Shown: positions 2,669 through 55,624 of the stretch, in pieces
How positions within the stretch are numbered: the stretch's first letter is position 1
Layout of the letters: every line of letters begins with the position of its first letter
Assembly: GCF_001591385.1 (NCBI RefSeq)
Contig: NZ_BCUU01000015.1
Coordinates: 1 to 64,000 of the forward strand
Origin: Variovorax soli NBRC 106424
GTDB taxonomy: Bacteria > Pseudomonadota > Gammaproteobacteria > Burkholderiales > Burkholderiaceae_C
Reading direction: 5' to 3'
Length of the DNA: 64,000 bases
Made by a program: the position numbers and the translations under genes
The notes under the pieces: model-generated
Seen by the model: only the letters and a program-made list of their open reading frames with translations
What the model was told of the DNA's origin: nothing
Databases searched by the model: none

Positions 2669-3255
2669 GCGACGAAAGCACCCAGCGCCTGATCGCCCAA
2701 CTGGTGCCGCCCGGCTCGCGCGTGCTCGACCTGGGCTGCGGCGACGGCAGCCTGCTCGACCTGCTCCAGCGCGAACGGGGCTGCACCGGCTATGGCGTCG
2801 AGATCGCCGACGGCAACGTGCTCAAGTGCATCCGCCGCGGTGTGGACGTGATCCAGCTGAACCTGGACGAAGGCCTGGCGCTGTTCCAGGATGCTTCCTT
2901 CGACGTGGTGCTGCAGATCGACACGCTGCAGCACCTGCGCAATGCCGAGATCATGCTGCGCGAGACCGTGCGCGTAGGGCGCATCGGCATCGTGGCTTTC
3001 CCCAACTTCGCGCACTGGCCCAACCGCATCAGCATCGCGCGCGGCCGCATGCCGGTGACCCGGCGCCTGCCCTACCAGTGGTACGACACGCCCAACATCC
3101 GCGTGGGCACGTTCAAGGACTTCGAGGTGCTGGCGGGCAAGAACAACCTGCGCGTGCTCGATGCCTTCGGTCTGCAGGGCGAGCGCGAAGTGCGCTGGCT
3201 GCCCAATGCCCGTGCTGGCACGGCGGTGTTCAAGTTCGAGCGCAACGGCGCTTGA
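2665..3255 (+). CDS. metW: methionine biosynthesis protein MetW
   Basis: A 196-residue class I methyltransferase-fold protein with the AdoMet-binding motif [12 protein letters not shown] (about residues 19-30). MetW accompanies MetX in many proteobacteria and is needed for full homoserine acylation; a chemical role as methyltransferase is not established. The GTG start at 2665 overlaps the metX stop (GTGA) and has GGAGG at 2653-2657, which decides it. Co-transcribed and translationally coupled with metX, hence under the SAM-II switch. Confidence 0.95.
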
Positions 3256-50215: not shown

Positions 50216-51184
50216 TCAGCCCGCTTGGCCCAGCAGCTGGGTGAAGCGCTGGAGGTCGACGTTGCCGCCGCTCAGGATCACGCCGATGCGCTGCCCCGGC
50301 TGCGCCAATCGGCGCGCGGCGGCAAAGGCGAGGCAGCCGGTGGGCTCCACCAGCATCTTCATGCGCTCGGCGAAGAAGCGCATGGCATCCACCAGCTCGG
50401 CGTCGGTGGCGGTGTGGATGTCCTCCACCTCGCGGCGGATGATGGCGAAGGTGTGTTCGCCCAGGTGCTGGGTCTGCGCCCCGTCGGCAATGGTGCGCGG
50501 CGTGTCGATGTGCACGATGCGGCCCGCGCGAAAGGATTGCTGCCCGTCGTTGCCGGCCGCCGGCTCCACGCCATAGACCTTGCACTGCGGCGCCAGCGCC
50601 CTGGCGGAAAGCGCGCAGCCCGACAGCAGGCCGCCGCCGCCCAGCGGCACGAAGAGCGCGTCGAGCGGCCCGGTGTCTTCCAATAGCTCCAGCGCGGCCG
50701 TGCCCTGCCCGGCGATCACGTGCGGATGGTCGTAAGGCGGGATCAGCGTCATGCCGCGTTCTTCGGCCAAGCGGCGGGCCAGCACCTCGCGGTCTTCCTT
50801 GTAGCGGTCGTACAGCACCACCTCGCCGCCGTAGCCGCGCGTGGCCGCCACCTTCATGGCCGGCGCGTCGGCGGGCATGAGGATGGTGGCCGGAATGCCC
50901 AGGATCTGCGCCGCCAGCGCAATGGCCTGCGCGTGGTTGCCCGATGAGAAGGCCGCCACGCCGGCGCGGCGCTGCCCGGCGTCGAAGCACGACAGCGCAT
51001 TGAAGCCGCCGCGGAACTTGAAGGCGCCCATGCGCTGGAAGTTCTCGCACTTGAAGAAGAACTGCGCGCCGGTGGCGGCATCCACCGTGCGCGAGCGCAT
51101 CACCGGCGTGCGGTGCGCCTGGCCAGCCAGCCGGGCGGCGGCGGCCTTCACGTCCTCGAAGCCCGGGGTGGCCAGTGCGCTCAT
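50216..51184 (-). CDS. PLP-dependent threonine dehydratase-like / threo-3-hydroxyaspartate ammonia-lyase
   Basis: A 322-residue fold-type II PLP enzyme without an ACT domain. The PLP lysine is in KCENFQRMGAFKFRGGFNAL (split ENFQRMGAFKFRG, about 51-63) and the phosphate loop is SCGGGGLLSG-like GGGGLLSG (about 184-191). SSGNHAQ (about 82-88) recognises the amino acid carboxylate. Length and the GAFKFRG...SSGNHAQ pattern fit serine racemase/hydroxyaspartate ammonia-lyase better than biosynthetic IlvA. Substrate is inferred. It lies 23 bases downstream of topB on the same strand. Confidence 0.86.
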   Translation of the reverse strand: MSALATPGFEDVKAAAARLAGQAHRTPVMRSRTVDAATGAQFFFKCENFQRMGAFKFRGGFNALSCFDAGQRRAGVAAFSSGNHAQAIALAAQILGIPATILMPADAPAMKVAATRGYGGEVVLYDRYKEDREVLARRLAEERGMTLIPPYDHPHVIAGQGTAALELLEDTGPLDALFVPLGGGGLLSGCALSARALAPQCKVYGVEPAAGNDGQQSFRAGRIVHIDTPRTIADGAQTQHLGEHTFAIIRREVEDIHTATDAELVDAMRFFAERMKMLVEPTGCLAFAAARRLAQPGQRIGVILSGGNVDLQRFTQLLGQAG

Positions 51185-51207: not shown

Positions 51208-54156
51208 TCAGCTCAGGTGCTTGCCGACGATGCCGGCCAGCTCGAACATCGTGACCTGGTCCTTGCCGAACACGGGCTTGAGCCTGGCATCGGCATTGAT
51301 GGCGCGCTTGTCCTTGGCGTCCTGCAGGCCGTTGGCCTTGATGTAGTCCCACAGCTTCTTGATCACTTCGGTGCGGGCGACCGGCTCGTTGCCCACGACT
51401 GCGGCGAGTTCGGCGCTGGGCGTGAGCCCCGCGGCGGGCTTGCGCGGCGCCTTGGGCGCCTTGGGCGTCTTGGCCGCCGCGGTCTTCTTGGCAGCCGGTG
51501 CCTTCTTCGCGGCGGCCTTCTTGGCCGCGGTCACGGTCGGCGTCTTCGTGGTCGCCAGCGTCTTGCGCGGCGGGAACTTGGAGGTGCGCGGCTCGAATTC
51601 GAAGGTGACCTTGCCCTCTTCCTTGTTCCACACCAGGAAGGCCTTGAAGGCGCGCCGCGTGCGCATGCTGACGAACTTGTCCAAGAGGTCGGTCTTGCCT
51701 TCGGCCAGGAGCTTTTGCACCTGCTCGGGCGACACCGGCTGCTGCAGGATCACCTTGCCGGACTTGAAGTCGCAGGTGGGCGTGGGCTGCGCCGCCGTGG
51801 GCACCGACTTCTCGCACACATAGTTGCTGCCGAACTCGAACACGCGGCTGCTGCATTTCGGGCACGGCCCGAGGGATTGCTGGCCGCTGAAGTCGACGAT
51901 CTCGCCCGTTTCGGCCGGGTCCTTCTCGTCGCCGAAGTCGAACTCCAGCTTGTAGTTCTTCGCCTCTTCGTCGAACTTCAGGACGATCTCGGAGACGAAG
52001 GGCCAGCCCGCCTTGGAGCGGAAGCCTTCCAGCGGGCCGATGTGCTTGTCGCGCAGCAGCGCCTCGGCCTCGGCCACCTCGAAGGTGCGGCCGGCCGGCG
52101 ACTTGCCGAAGGAAAAGCCGCAGGGCTCCTGCCCAGGCTTGCCGGTGCAGGCGTAGCGCCGGTAGTTCTCGCGAACCACGCCGCCGCAGTTGGGGCACGG
52201 CGTGCTCAAGGTGGCGTAGTCGCCCGGTACGGTGTCGCGGTCGTACTCCTTGGCCTTCTTGACGATGTGCTCCGTCATTTCGGCGATCTCGCGCATGAAG
52301 GCGTCGCGGCTGAGCTTGCCGTGCTCCATCTGCGAGAGCTTGTATTCCCACTCGCCGGTGAGCTCGGCCTTGGACAGTTCCTCCACCCCCAGGCCGCGCA
52401 GCAGCGTCATGAGCTGGAAGGCCTTGGCCGTCGGGATGAGCTCGCGGCCCTCGCGCAGGATGTACTTCTCGGCCAGCAGGCCTTCGATGATGGCTGCGCG
52501 CGTGGCCGGCGTGCCCAGGCCCTTTTCCTGCATGGCCTCGCGCAGCTCGTCGTCGTCGATGAGCTTGCCGGCGCCCTCCATGGCGCCCAGCAGCGTGGCT
52601 TCGGAATAGCGGGCCGGCGGACGGGTCTTCAGGCCCTTGGCGTCGGCGGATTCATTCAGCACCTTCTCGCCGGGCTTGACGGGCACCAGGTTCTTGCCGT
52701 CCTTCTCGTCGTCGTCGCTCACCGCTTCCTTGCCGTAGATGGCCATCCAGCCCGGCTTGACCAGCACCTTGCCGTCGGAGCGGAAGTTGTAGTCCTTGCC
52801 CTCGTGCGACACGGTGCTGATGCGGGTGGTCACCTGGAATTCGGCGCTGGGGAAGAACACCGACAGGAAGCGCCGCACCACGAAGTCGTACAGCTTCTGC
52901 TCCGCATCCGACAGGCCCGAGGGCGCCTGCAGCGTCGGGATGATGGCGAAGTGGTCCGACACCTTGGCGTTGTCGAAGATGCGCTTGGCTGGCCGGACGT
53001 AGTTGCCGTCGATGGCCTGCTGCGCGAAAGGCGCCAGATGCTTCATGCCGCTGTTGGCGAGCATGCCCATCGTCTGCTTCACCACCGGCAGGTAGTCCTC
53101 GGGCAGTGCGCGCGAGTCGGTACGCGGGTAGGTGAGTGCCTTGTGCCGCTCGTACAGGCTCTGCGCGAGCGCCAGCGTGGTCTTGGCCGAGAAGCCGAAG
53201 CGGCTGTTGGCCTCGCGCTGCAGCGAGGTCAGGTCGAACAGCAGCGGCGAGGCCTGCGTGGTGGGCTTGCTTTCTTCCGTGACGGTGGCGGGTTGGCCGC
53301 GCGCCGCATCGGCAATGGCCAGGGCGTCGCGCTCGTTCCACACGCGGTCGGCGCGCTGCTCGGGGTCGGGCTCGCCATTGGGCAACAGGGGCGCGTTGGC
53401 CTTCTTCCAGTTCGGATCGAACCATTTACCCGGGTACTGGCCCGCCTCGGCCTGGAAGCTCGCGTGGATTTCCCAGTAGTCGCGCGAGACGAACTTGCGG
53501 ATCTGCTCCTCGCGCTCCACCACCACCGACAGGGTGGGTGTCTGCACCCGGCCCACGGTGGTGAGGAAGAAGCCGCCGTCGCGCGAGTTGAAGGCGGTCA
53601 TGGCCCGGGTGCCGTTGATGCCCACCAGCCAGTCGGCTTCGGAGCGCGAGCGCGCCGCATCGGCCAGGCCCTGCATCTGCTTTTCGCTGCGCAGCTGCTC
53701 GAAGCCGTCGCGGATCGCCTGCGGCGTCATCGACTGCAGCCACAGCCGCTGCACCGGCTTGCCCAGCGGCTTGGCGCCGCCGGCGTACTGCTCGATCAGG
53801 CGGAAGATCAGCTCGCCCTCGCGGCCCGCGTCGCAGGCGTTCACCAGCGCGGACACATCTTTGCGCTTGGCCTGCTTCACCACGGCGTTCAGGCGCGTCT
53901 TGGTCTTTTCCACCGGCTTCAAATCGAAGCGCGGCGGGATCACCGGCAGGTTGGCAAAGCTCCACTTGCCGCGCTTCACGTCGTATTCCTCGGGGGCCTG
54001 GATCTCCACCAGGTGGCCCACGGCGCTGGTCACGACGTACTTCTCGTTCTCGAAGTGCTCGTCGTGCTTGTCGAACTTGCCGGCCACCGGCGTGAGCGCC
54101 CGGACGATGTCCTGGGCCACCGACGGTTTTTCTGCAATCACCAATGTCTTCGTCAT
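51208..54156 (-). CDS. topB: DNA topoisomerase III with zinc ribbons, H1-like basic linker and C-terminal SWIB domain
   Basis: Type IA topoisomerase of 982 residues that decatenates and relaxes DNA. Toprim is at 1-135 (VIAEKPSVA; DAGREGE); the catalytic Tyr is in ALTYPRTDSR (about residue 344). After the core (to about 610) come Cys pairs CPNCGG, a YRRYACTG region, and CPKCSSRVFE. Residues about 872-907 form a Lys/Ala/Pro-rich tail like histone H1 (AAKKAPAAKKTAAAKTPKAP). The final 75 residues (908-982) are a SWIB/MDM2 domain (LAAVVGNEPVARTEVIKKLW; KANGLQDAKDKRAI). It is divergent from a SET-domain gene. Confidence 0.93.
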   Translation of the reverse strand: MTKTLVIAEKPSVAQDIVRALTPVAGKFDKHDEHFENEKYVVTSAVGHLVEIQAPEEYDVKRGKWSFANLPVIPPRFDLKPVEKTKTRLNAVVKQAKRKDVSALVNACDAGREGELIFRLIEQYAGGAKPLGKPVQRLWLQSMTPQAIRDGFEQLRSEKQMQGLADAARSRSEADWLVGINGTRAMTAFNSRDGGFFLTTVGRVQTPTLSVVVEREEQIRKFVSRDYWEIHASFQAEAGQYPGKWFDPNWKKANAPLLPNGEPDPEQRADRVWNERDALAIADAARGQPATVTEESKPTTQASPLLFDLTSLQREANSRFGFSAKTTLALAQSLYERHKALTYPRTDSRALPEDYLPVVKQTMGMLANSGMKHLAPFAQQAIDGNYVRPAKRIFDNAKVSDHFAIIPTLQAPSGLSDAEQKLYDFVVRRFLSVFFPSAEFQVTTRISTVSHEGKDYNFRSDGKVLVKPGWMAIYGKEAVSDDDEKDGKNLVPVKPGEKVLNESADAKGLKTRPPARYSEATLLGAMEGAGKLIDDDELREAMQEKGLGTPATRAAIIEGLLAEKYILREGRELIPTAKAFQLMTLLRGLGVEELSKAELTGEWEYKLSQMEHGKLSRDAFMREIAEMTEHIVKKAKEYDRDTVPGDYATLSTPCPNCGGVVRENYRRYACTGKPGQEPCGFSFGKSPAGRTFEVAEAEALLRDKHIGPLEGFRSKAGWPFVSEIVLKFDEEAKNYKLEFDFGDEKDPAETGEIVDFSGQQSLGPCPKCSSRVFEFGSNYVCEKSVPTAAQPTPTCDFKSGKVILQQPVSPEQVQKLLAEGKTDLLDKFVSMRTRRAFKAFLVWNKEEGKVTFEFEPRTSKFPPRKTLATTKTPTVTAAKKAAAKKAPAAKKTAAAKTPKAPKAPRKPAAGLTPSAELAAVVGNEPVARTEVIKKLWDYIKANGLQDAKDKRAINADARLKPVFGKDQVTMFELAGIVGKHLS

Positions 54157-54185
54157 CTCGGCTCTCTCTACAATCTGGCGCTTCT

Positions 54186-54222
54186 CACGCGTGCGTACAC
54201 GCGCACGCGCATGCGTACATAT
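54186..54222. repeat. 37-bp perfectly alternating pyrimidine-purine tract between topB and the SET gene
   Basis: Every base from 54186 to 54222 alternates pyrimidine and purine, mostly CG and CA/TG steps. Such tracts favour left-handed Z-DNA under negative supercoiling. It also contains the 8-base direct repeat TGCGTACA at 54192-54199 and 54212-54219, exactly 20 bp apart. It lies between the divergent starts of topB (54156) and the SET gene (54244), so it probably overlaps both promoters. Confidence 0.8.
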
Positions 54223-54243
54223 TCAAACTAACAGACTTCGGCG

Positions 54244-54798
54244 ATGCCTTCCAAATCCACCCCGAGCAGCGGCCGCCGCATCCAGACGCGGCGCTCCGGC
54301 GTCCACGGCAACGGCGTGTTCGCCCTGCAAGACATCGCCGAAGGCGAAACCCTGGTCGAGTACAAGGGCGAGGTCATCACCTGGGAAGAGGCGCTGCGCC
54401 GCCATCCCCACGACCCGTCGCAGCCCAACCACACCTTCTACTTCCACGTCGACGACGAGCGTGTGATCGACGGCAAGGTGAACGGCAACTCCGCCAAGTG
54501 GATCAACCACTCGTGCGACCCCAACTGCGAGGCCGACGAGCAGAATGGCCGCATCTTCATCAAGGCCCTGCGCAACATCAAGGCCGGCGAAGAGCTCAAC
54601 TACGACTACGGCCTGATCATCGACGAGGAATACACGCCCAAGCTGCTGGCCGAGTTCCCCTGCTGGTGCGGCGCCGAGACCTGCCGCGGCACGCTGCTGT
54701 CGCCCAAGGACGACGAGGAAGAAGGCAAGAAGTCCAGCAAGAAAAAGAAGAAGAAAAAAGCCAAGAACAAGAAAAAGAAGGCCAAGAAGAAGGATTGA
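54244..54798 (+). CDS. SET-domain protein (putative protein-lysine methyltransferase) with Lys-rich tail
   Basis: A 184-residue protein with a full SET core. GVHGNGVFALQDI (about 19-31) starts the domain; WINHSCDPNCEA (about 86-97) is the AdoMet-binding NHSC motif; GEELNYDYGL (about 116-125) carries the catalytic Tyr residues. The post-SET cysteine cluster is CWCGAETCRGTL (about 140-151). An acidic patch and a Lys-rich tail (about 160-184) follow. It likely methylates lysines of basic proteins; the target is unknown. The adjacent topoisomerase tail is a candidate. No clear ribosome-binding site. Confidence 0.9.
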   Translation: MPSKSTPSSGRRIQTRRSGVHGNGVFALQDIAEGETLVEYKGEVITWEEALRRHPHDPSQPNHTFYFHVDDERVIDGKVNGNSAKWINHSCDPNCEADEQNGRIFIKALRNIKAGEELNYDYGLIIDEEYTPKLLAEFPCWCGAETCRGTLLSPKDDEEEGKKSSKKKKKKKAKNKKKKAKKKD

Positions 54799-54808
54799 GC
54801 TCCCTGCC

Positions 54809-55624
54809 ATGACCCCCCAGCCCGCATCCGCCTGGCCGCTGGCCGAACTGAGCGCGCAGCTCGATGCCTTGCTGCCGGGCTGCCGGGTGGAACTGGTGGA
54901 GGAAATCGACTCCACCAACACCGAGCTGATGCGGCGCGGGCGCGCGGGCCGGGCCGGCGAGGCCGTGCTGCTGGTGGCCCTGCGCCAGAGCGCCGGCCGC
55001 GGGCGCATGGGCCGGCCCTGGCAAAGCCAGACGGGCGAGACCGACGCCGCCCCCACCCTCACCTTTTCGCTGGGGCTTCCGCTGGCGCCGCGCGACTGGT
55101 CGGGCCTCTCGCTGGCCGTGGGCGTGGCGGTGGCCGAGGCGCTGGATCCGCAACGCAGCGCCGGCCTGGCCCTGAAGTGGCCCAACGACCTGTGGCTGCA
55201 GGACCGCAAGCTGGCCGGCATCCTGATCGAGACCGCCACCCTGCCCGGGGAAGCGTCGACGGCCACGCGCTACGCGGTGATCGGCGTGGGCATCAACATC
55301 GGCCCGCGCGACGCGCAGGGCATGAACACGCCACCGGCCTGCGTGCGCGAGTGGCAGCCGCAGGCCACCGCTCCTGGCGCGCTGGCGCAGATCGCGGCGC
55401 CCCTGCTGCGCACGGTGCTGGAGTTTTCCGAGACAGGCTTCGGCCCGCTGGCCACCCGTTTTGCCCAACGCGACGCCCTGCGCGGGCGCGAGGTGCAGCT
55501 GAGCGACGGCACCGCAGGCCGCTGCGAAGGCGTGGGCTGGACCGGCGAACTGCTCGTGCATACTGCGGCCGGCATGCAATCCATCACCAGCTCCGAAGTC
55601 AGCGTGCGCCCGCGCGCCGGCTGA
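54809..55624 (+). CDS. birA: biotin-[acetyl-CoA-carboxylase] ligase, monofunctional BirA type
   Basis: Attaches biotin to the carrier lysine of acetyl-CoA carboxylase. The 271 residues hold the catalytic domain only: EEIDSTNTELM (about 31-41), the adenylate-binding loop SAGRGRMGRPW (about 61-71), LKWPNDLWLQDRKLAGILIE (split KWPNDLW and KLAGILIE, about 121-142), and IGVGINI. The C-terminal SH3-like domain follows. There is no N-terminal helix-turn-helix, so it should not act as a repressor. It starts 10 bases after the SET gene and is probably co-transcribed. Confidence 0.95.
   Translation: MTPQPASAWPLAELSAQLDALLPGCRVELVEEIDSTNTELMRRGRAGRAGEAVLLVALRQSAGRGRMGRPWQSQTGETDAAPTLTFSLGLPLAPRDWSGLSLAVGVAVAEALDPQRSAGLALKWPNDLWLQDRKLAGILIETATLPGEASTATRYAVIGVGINIGPRDAQGMNTPPACVREWQPQATAPGALAQIAAPLLRTVLEFSETGFGPLATRFAQRDALRGREVQLSDGTAGRCEGVGWTGELLVHTAAGMQSITSSEVSVRPRAG

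What the first reader, a model, noticed from the sequence alone, without database searches (positions are those of the whole stretch)
51208..54798. Chromatin-type locus: topoisomerase III-SWIB fusion divergent from a SET-domain methyltransferase
TopB carries an H1-like Lys/Ala/Pro linker (about residues 872-907) and a C-terminal SWIB domain. The divergent neighbour is a complete SET protein (NHSC, ELNYDYG, post-SET cysteines) with its own Lys-rich tail. SWIB, SET and histone-like tails are hallmarks of eukaryotic chromatin; Chlamydia also combines a SWIB-fused topoisomerase with a SET enzyme acting on histone-like proteins. Having all of these in one divergent locus suggests that the SET enzyme methylates the topoisomerase tail or other basic DNA-binding proteins, as a bacterial chromatin-control module. 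The domains are visible; the partnership is my inference.
Basis: partly seen in the sequence, partly recalled or inferred. Interest (0 to 1): 0.7.

Follow-up and report, generated by a model that had tools for sequence, protein, structure and literature searches.

The report
SET methyltransferase beside SWIB-tailed topoisomerase III

Summary
In detail: a 982-aa topoisomerase III with a Lys/Ala/Pro linker and C-terminal SWIB (51208-54156, -) lies 87 bp from a divergent 184-aa SET protein (54244-54798, +). The pairing is strongly conserved: 120 of 122 family genomes with both genes listed are divergent neighbours. The block is really topB/SET/birA; birA beside SET is equally constant. The 'module' reading is weaker. 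SWIB is missing from up to 47 of those 120 TopBs, the Lys-rich SET tail from many genera, and genomes that lost SET keep topB, two of them with SWIB. In another family SET and topB adjoin convergently, and TopB's tail has 0-1 lysines. The SWIB tail resembles a standalone protein (H1-like AAPAKK-repeat tail plus SWIB) whose kind is found in at least 110 of 120 genomes. KK-rich tails on that protein occurred only in SET-bearing genomes (28 of 40 versus 0 of 8), but lysine depletion and phylogeny confound this. I judge SET an intrinsic lysine methyltransferase of H1-like basic tails, TopB's possibly among them: inferred, not shown.

The parts
51208..54156 (-). topB: DNA topoisomerase III (type IA), 982 aa
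   Evidence: Pfam Topoisom_bac 365 bits, Toprim, Toprim_Crpt; NCBIfam PRK14724 full length
51424..51585 (-). Lys/Ala/Pro-rich H1-like linker of TopB (about aa 858-911)
   Evidence: sequence; contains the AAKKxxAKK coding pattern found in only 3 genes of the genome
51214..51423 (-). C-terminal SWIB domain of TopB (aa 912-981)
   Evidence: PF02201 E 2.4e-25; same place in the whole-genome search
54157..54243 (.). 87-bp divergent intergenic region between topB and SET
   Evidence: from ORF coordinates; distances between aligned ends in relatives 85-702 bp, median 153.5; no sigma-70-like or terminator-like consensus found in 54050-54900
54244..54798 (+). SET-domain protein, predicted lysine methyltransferase, 184 aa, with post-SET cysteines
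   Evidence: PF00856; invariant motifs; AlphaFold model mean pLDDT 82, pTM 0.68; best Foldseek match MLL1 SET, 37% identity, TM-score 0.62 by query length
54703..54795 (+). Lys-rich C-terminal tail of the SET protein (variable among relatives)
   Evidence: tail table
54809..55624 (+). birA, biotin--[acetyl-CoA-carboxylase] ligase, 10 bp downstream of SET
   Evidence: PF03099, TIGR00121; downstream of SET in 77 of 77 named and 20 of 20 non-SWIB loci with room

Best explanation
The SET gene encodes an active, endogenous (not host-directed) protein lysine methyltransferase of the SET1/MLL-like fold. It most likely methylates lysines in H1-like (A/P)AKK-repeat tails of the cell's own nucleoid proteins. 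In this genome the candidates are a standalone H1-tail-SWIB protein, a 173-aa HC2/H1-like protein, possibly TopB's linker (and an RsfS-like protein's tail), and perhaps its own tail. Methylation would tune how these tails hold DNA or partners, and so tune topology or compaction. The topB/SET/birA block is an inherited arrangement of the family. The SWIB domain of this TopB was probably added in one clade by fusion of a standalone SWIB-type module. Shown: fold prediction, motifs, block conservation, existence of the candidate tails. Inferred: activity, substrates, fusion, effect.
For: Catalytic and Zn-binding residues invariant or nearly so across 23 sequences; E 5e-39 to human KMT2A by profile and 37% identity to MLL1 SET in Foldseek. 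Found in 187 of 200 family genomes over 132 of 141 genera (E up to 0.001, so a few may be paralogues), which fits a housekeeping role. In the own genome the AAKKxxAKK codon pattern hits 3 genes only: topB, an RsfS-like gene and the H1-like gene. SWIB domains in 118 of 120 genomes, in a short open frame in at least 110 (capped list); the own standalone copy carries an AAPAKK-repeat tail and is 65% identical to TopB's SWIB over 71 residues. KK-rich SWIB tails: 28 of 40 SET+ and 0 of 8 SET- genomes; all 6 inferred SET-loss lineages fall where the KK-poor state is inferred. TopB tail has at least one KK in 72 of 77 SET+ and 4 of 10 SET- genomes. Precedents: cpnSET is reported to methylate chlamydial Hc1 (PMC3980110 passages); NUE automethylates, probably at two adjacent Lys outside its SET domain (PMC2904774 passages).
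Against: SET- genomes are also depleted of lysine in the TopB core (K fraction p 0.0013; KK p 0.0036), so tail changes may reflect composition. SET losses cluster in about 3 KK-poor clades, and tests on independent pairs have too few pairs to be significant (2 pairs; 4). 12 of 40 SET+ genomes have KK-poor SWIB tails. The HC2/SET association fails at the strict threshold in the order (12 of 40 v 36 of 193, p 0.13), and HC2 hits include H1-SWIB, RsfS-like and a few TopB tails besides H1-like proteins. NUE did not methylate Hc1 in the study that tested it. f6 TopB tails lack lysine. No methylation data exist here.
Confidence: 0.42

Rival explanations
1. Passive neighbour: SET is an intrinsic methyltransferase whose substrate has nothing to do with topB or nucleoid tails (for example a translation or metabolic protein), and it merely sits inside a slowly changing block topB/SET/birA.
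For: birA is as constant a neighbour as topB (77 of 77 and 20 of 20). Two genes beyond birA are also often kept (63 of 72 and 57 of 69). In 5 of 5 SET-less family loci with room, topB and birA simply face each other. Outside the family 19 of 36 genomes have SET and topB on different contigs, and none of the 36 is divergent-adjacent.
Against: The PLP-enzyme gene on topB's other side is adjacent in 0 of 67 named loci, so order is not conserved everywhere. In four f6 loci SET and topB adjoin in a different, convergent orientation, and 11 of 36 lie 1.5-33 kb apart.
Confidence: 0.32
2. One reading: SET specifically methylates the TopB tail and the locus is a dedicated topoisomerase-control module.
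For: Tight divergent pairing. TopB tail KK retained in 72 of 77 SET+ against 4 of 10 SET- genomes.
Against: f6 has the adjoining pair but 0-1 Lys in the TopB tail. Basic TopB tails persist in all 20 SET-less genomes of other families that were read. Lysine depletion of SET- genomes also affects the TopB core.
Confidence: 0.15
3. Secreted effector acting on eukaryotic histones, as described for BtSET, LegAS4/RomA and NUE.
For: Closest solved structures are eukaryotic histone methyltransferases. Reviews describe BtSET of Burkholderia thailandensis as a type III effector (PMC3980110, PMC7819608 passages).
Against: Present in 187 of 200 family genomes over 132 genera, in a constant place next to topB and birA; the N-terminal extensions are not conserved. 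Secretion signals and secretion genes were not searched for.
Confidence: 0.06

Closest known systems
NCBIfam PRK14724 / PRK08173 topoisomerase III families
   Same: TopB matches PRK14724 over its whole length including the SWIB end
   Different: Nothing essential; the SWIB-bearing form is already a curated family. The model says nothing of the SET neighbour.
Chlamydial set: TopA-SWIB (CT643), NUE/cpnSET, Hc1/Hc2, standalone SWIB (CT460)
   Same: Same four kinds of part: SWIB-fused type IA topoisomerase, SET enzyme, H1-like proteins, small SWIB protein (PMC6426960 passages)
   Different: Here the enzyme is topoisomerase III, not I (PRK06319 scores 189 bits against a cut-off of 868), and topB and SET are adjacent. 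A 2025 paper on CtTopA calls SWIB rare in prokaryotes outside Chlamydia (PMC12445093 passages), while PMC6426960 already reports it in Verrucomicrobia and 11% of Proteobacteria; in this family it is in 118 of 120 genomes.
BtSET / LegAS4 / RomA bacterial SET effectors
   Same: SET-domain methyltransferases of Proteobacteria; the only NCBIfam hit of our SET is the LegAS4/AnkI model, far below cut-off (44 of 550 bits)
   Different: The match covers the SET part only. Whether BtSET is the topB-linked orthologue was not testable here (no locus named Burkholderia was fetched).
Eukaryotic MLL/SET1 (KMT2) SET domains
   Same: Fold, NH.C, YDY motif, post-SET cysteines; 37% identity in Foldseek
   Different: No accessory domains, short protein; substrate unknown; no test of descent was done

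Membership tests
SET-domain (class V) protein lysine methyltransferase | PF00856 SET domain over its full length | tested here: met
   E 1.2e-25, profile 1-105 of 105
SET-domain (class V) protein lysine methyltransferase | NHxC motif, catalytic Tyr, ELxYDY, post-SET CxCx4C (motifs recalled) | tested here: met
   invariant or nearly invariant in 23 rows
SET-domain (class V) protein lysine methyltransferase | SAM-dependent lysine methyl transfer | not testable with these tools
   needs enzymology
DNA topoisomerase III PRK14724 | full-length match above curated cut-off | tested here: met
   1976 bits v 1088
Chlamydial topoisomerase I/SWI fusion PRK06319 | match above curated cut-off | tested here: not met
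   189 bits v 868
LegAS4/AnkI (T4SS effector, NF043024) | match above curated cut-off | tested here: not met
   44 bits v 550
   within the family 120 of 122 and 75 of 75; outside it not as divergent neighbours in any of 36
   family f6, 4 loci, 0-1 Lys
   needs mass spectrometry

The most novel reading that the evidence does not exclude
A largely non-pathogenic bacterial family runs a histone-tail-like methylation system: the SET enzyme writes methyl marks on KK repeats of H1-like tails carried by a near-universal H1-tail-SWIB nucleoid protein, by an H1-like protein and by topoisomerase III. Lineages whose KK-rich tails decayed later discarded the enzyme, while one clade wired the same tail-SWIB module directly onto topoisomerase III.
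Probability: 0.25. Interest if true: 0.85.

Novelty: new variant of a known kind. Interest (0 to 1): 0.5.

Why it matters
The reviews seen here discuss bacterial SET proteins mainly as effectors that hit host chromatin. A SET enzyme found in 187 of 200 genomes of a large family and fixed beside a topoisomerase gene makes an internal chromatin-like role the simpler view, and it offers tractable laboratory species in which to find the substrate. The wide spread of SWIB in this family also runs against the statement in print that SWIB domains are rare in prokaryotes outside Chlamydia (PMC12445093, passages).

Tried and rejected
Secreted effector: rejected as main reading because of breadth and constant locus. 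SWIB as an obligate partner of SET: rejected, since SWIB is absent from many paired TopBs and present without SET. SET/HC2 co-occurrence as proof of substrate: 121 of 187 SET+ against 2 of 13 SET- family genomes (p 0.0006; among genomes up to 3.1 Mb 20 of 28 against 2 of 13), and 29 of 40 against 77 of 193 in the order at E up to 0.001. But SET loss is only 2 changes on the 56-genome tree, HC2 hits are mixed, and the strict-threshold order test fails. KK-tail association: kept as a hint only, because of the composition control. Promoter/terminator scan: nothing found. Class-level search: apart from the own genome and one family member, 3 more of 185 genomes have a match at E up to 1e-40; their topB linkage was not examined. 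Literature: 10 searches listed nothing that describes the topB-SET pairing in beta-proteobacteria; I judged this from listings and read passages of only a few papers, and most subscription papers are not held. PMC3372290 (outline and abstract) and PMC10969213 (hits in the reference list only) were not useful.

Errors of mine: searches used out-of-frame references for the PLP-enzyme neighbour; it was corrected and counted.
Full report
WHAT IS THERE. TopB (51208-54156, -) is a complete topoisomerase III with a C-terminal SWIB domain and a Lys/Ala/Pro linker. SET (54244-54798, +) is a complete SET domain whose expected catalytic and post-SET residues (motifs recalled) are invariant or nearly so among 23 sequences. 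birA follows 10 bp after SET. SET is the only PF00856 match in the genome. The predicted structure (mean pLDDT 82, pTM 0.68) is closest to MLL1 SET domains among solved structures (37% identity, TM-score 0.62 by query length; by sequence profile E 5e-39).

CONSERVATION OF THE PAIR. Two searches covered the same 200 genomes of the family (141 genera). SET was matched in 187 of 200 and TopB in 193 of 200. Match lists are cut by the tool, leaving 149 rows each besides the own genome; 122 genomes appear in both. Of these 120 are divergent neighbours, with 85-702 bp between aligned ends; the other two have the genes on separate contigs, TopB starting about 200 bp from a contig start in both and SET 106 bp from one in one. 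Of 80 named loci, mostly titled as Comamonadaceae genera, 75 have room upstream and all 75 show divergent topB; 77 have room downstream and all 77 show birA; 69 of the 76 with a TopB match have a SWIB match. The gene on topB's far side in the window (a PLP enzyme, PF00291) is adjacent in 0 of 67, while the two genes tested beyond birA are found in 63 of 72 and 57 of 69. So the unit is topB/SET/birA, and adjacency to topB is no more constant than adjacency to birA.

OUTSIDE THE FAMILY. In 240 genomes of the order (7 of them family members), 56 have SET at E up to 1e-15 and 122 have TopB at E up to 1e-60. Of the 49 non-family genomes with SET I took the 40 stronger ones; 36 of these also have a listed TopB. 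Among the 36: 19 on different contigs (which in fragmented assemblies does not exclude linkage), 4 adjacent (all family f6, convergent), 11 at 1.5-33 kb (two of these only if the contig is circular), one at 87 kb, one 3 Mb away; none divergent-adjacent. A quick tree puts the f6 genes among other-family SETs (21 of 50 inner branches are poorly supported).

THE PARTS ARE NOT A SET. 47 of the 120 paired TopB matches end before SWIB. This is an upper bound for loss, since one unpaired TopB whose match also ended early (G066) does keep SWIB. Twenty of the 47 were fetched: none has SWIB and all keep a short K/A tail. Lys-rich SET tails (10 or more K after the last Cys) occur in 25 of 26 same-genus sequences and 15 of 28 of the other family sequences with listed loci, but in 0 of 19 readable rows of the non-SWIB loci, most of which end ...PKR. 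Of 6 SET-less family loci examined, 5 show topB and birA face to face with SET absent; the sixth contig had no room. Two of the 6 (L273, L276) keep TopB-SWIB. In 20 SET-less genomes of other families the TopB tail has 3-18 Lys; in f6, with SET adjoining, it has 0-1. This is the strongest evidence against TopB's tail being the reason for the linkage.

WHERE THE SWIB TAIL COMES FROM. SWIB is found in 118 of 120 family genomes, and the capped list shows it in an open frame under 500 aa, hence not TopB, in at least 110. The own genome encodes such a protein with a tail of repeated AAPAKK units followed by SWIB, 65% identical to TopB's SWIB over 71 residues. TopB's C terminus therefore looks like that kind of module fused on (inference); SWIB presence on TopB needs only 2 changes on a 56-genome TopB tree.

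CANDIDATE SUBSTRATES. In this genome the AAKKxxAKK coding pattern occurs in three genes: topB, a 221-aa protein I recognise as RsfS-like (name recalled, no family search run) with a K/A tail, and a 173-aa H1-like protein (HC2 family, 63 bits) downstream of what looks like nrdB (recalled). Standalone SWIB tails were read in 48 hand-chosen genomes: KK count at least 4 in 28 of 40 SET+ and 0 of 8 SET-. In the rank tests three rows with unsure starts were dropped, leaving 38 and 7 (KK p 0.003). Only one SWIB copy was read in genomes with two. On an 88-row TopB tree six SET-loss lineages fall where the KK-poor state is inferred, which makes up 41-51% of the branch length; a seventh, the poorly placed G133, is KK-poor itself but ambiguous if its own tail is ignored. 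If losses were independent that would be unlikely (about 0.005-0.01, my arithmetic), but they sit in about three clades, which weakens it to roughly 0.07-0.13; the independent-pairs test has too few pairs. TopB tails behave alike (72 of 77 against 4 of 10 with any KK). The control is unfavourable: the TopB core of SET- genomes is also poorer in Lys and KK. I therefore treat the tail hypothesis as a lead.

LITERATURE. [quoted passage not shown] cpnSET is reported to methylate Hc1 (PMC3980110, passages), while NUE did not but automethylates, probably at a Lys pair (PMC2904774, passages). BtSET is described as a type III effector of B. thailandensis (PMC3980110, PMC7819608, passages). In B. cenocepacia an H1-like HctB was pulled down with Bnr1, whose gene deletion alters supercoiling (PMC9060813, passages). 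I found no report of the topB-SET pairing in the ten searches listed under Tried and rejected.

VERDICT. A dedicated SET-on-TopB module is not supported; an intrinsic methylation system for H1-like tails is the most attractive reading but unproven.

Noticed in passing
L308, about 2716-3135 (+) (own genome, G000:C68): Standalone protein with an AAPAKK-repeat H1-like tail plus SWIB domain; SWIB in a short open frame in at least 110 of 120 family genomes.
   Followed up: yes
L286 1174-1695 (+) (own genome, G000:C80): 173-aa Lys/Ala-rich H1-like protein (HC2 family, 63 bits) next to what looks like nrdB (name recalled).
   Followed up: partly
L283 1342-2007 (-) (own genome, G000:C1): RsfS-like protein (name recalled) with a long AAKK/APAKK C-terminal tail, itself an HC2 hit of 45 bits.
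   Followed up: no
L269-L272: Family f6: SET and topB adjacent but convergent, one pair with overlapping matches, TopB tail nearly without lysine.
   Followed up: partly
G001-G024: 18 of 24 same-genus genomes carry at least one further, diverged SET match (about 37-43% identity), which the window's genome lacks.
   Followed up: no
L366/L367 (G104): TopB match in two pieces within one open frame of 1012 aa, as if a short insert splits the protein near residue 450.
   Followed up: no
window 50216-51184 (-): PLP-dependent enzyme (PF00291) beside topB in the window, adjacent in none of 67 named relatives, so its place here is probably local.
   Followed up: partly
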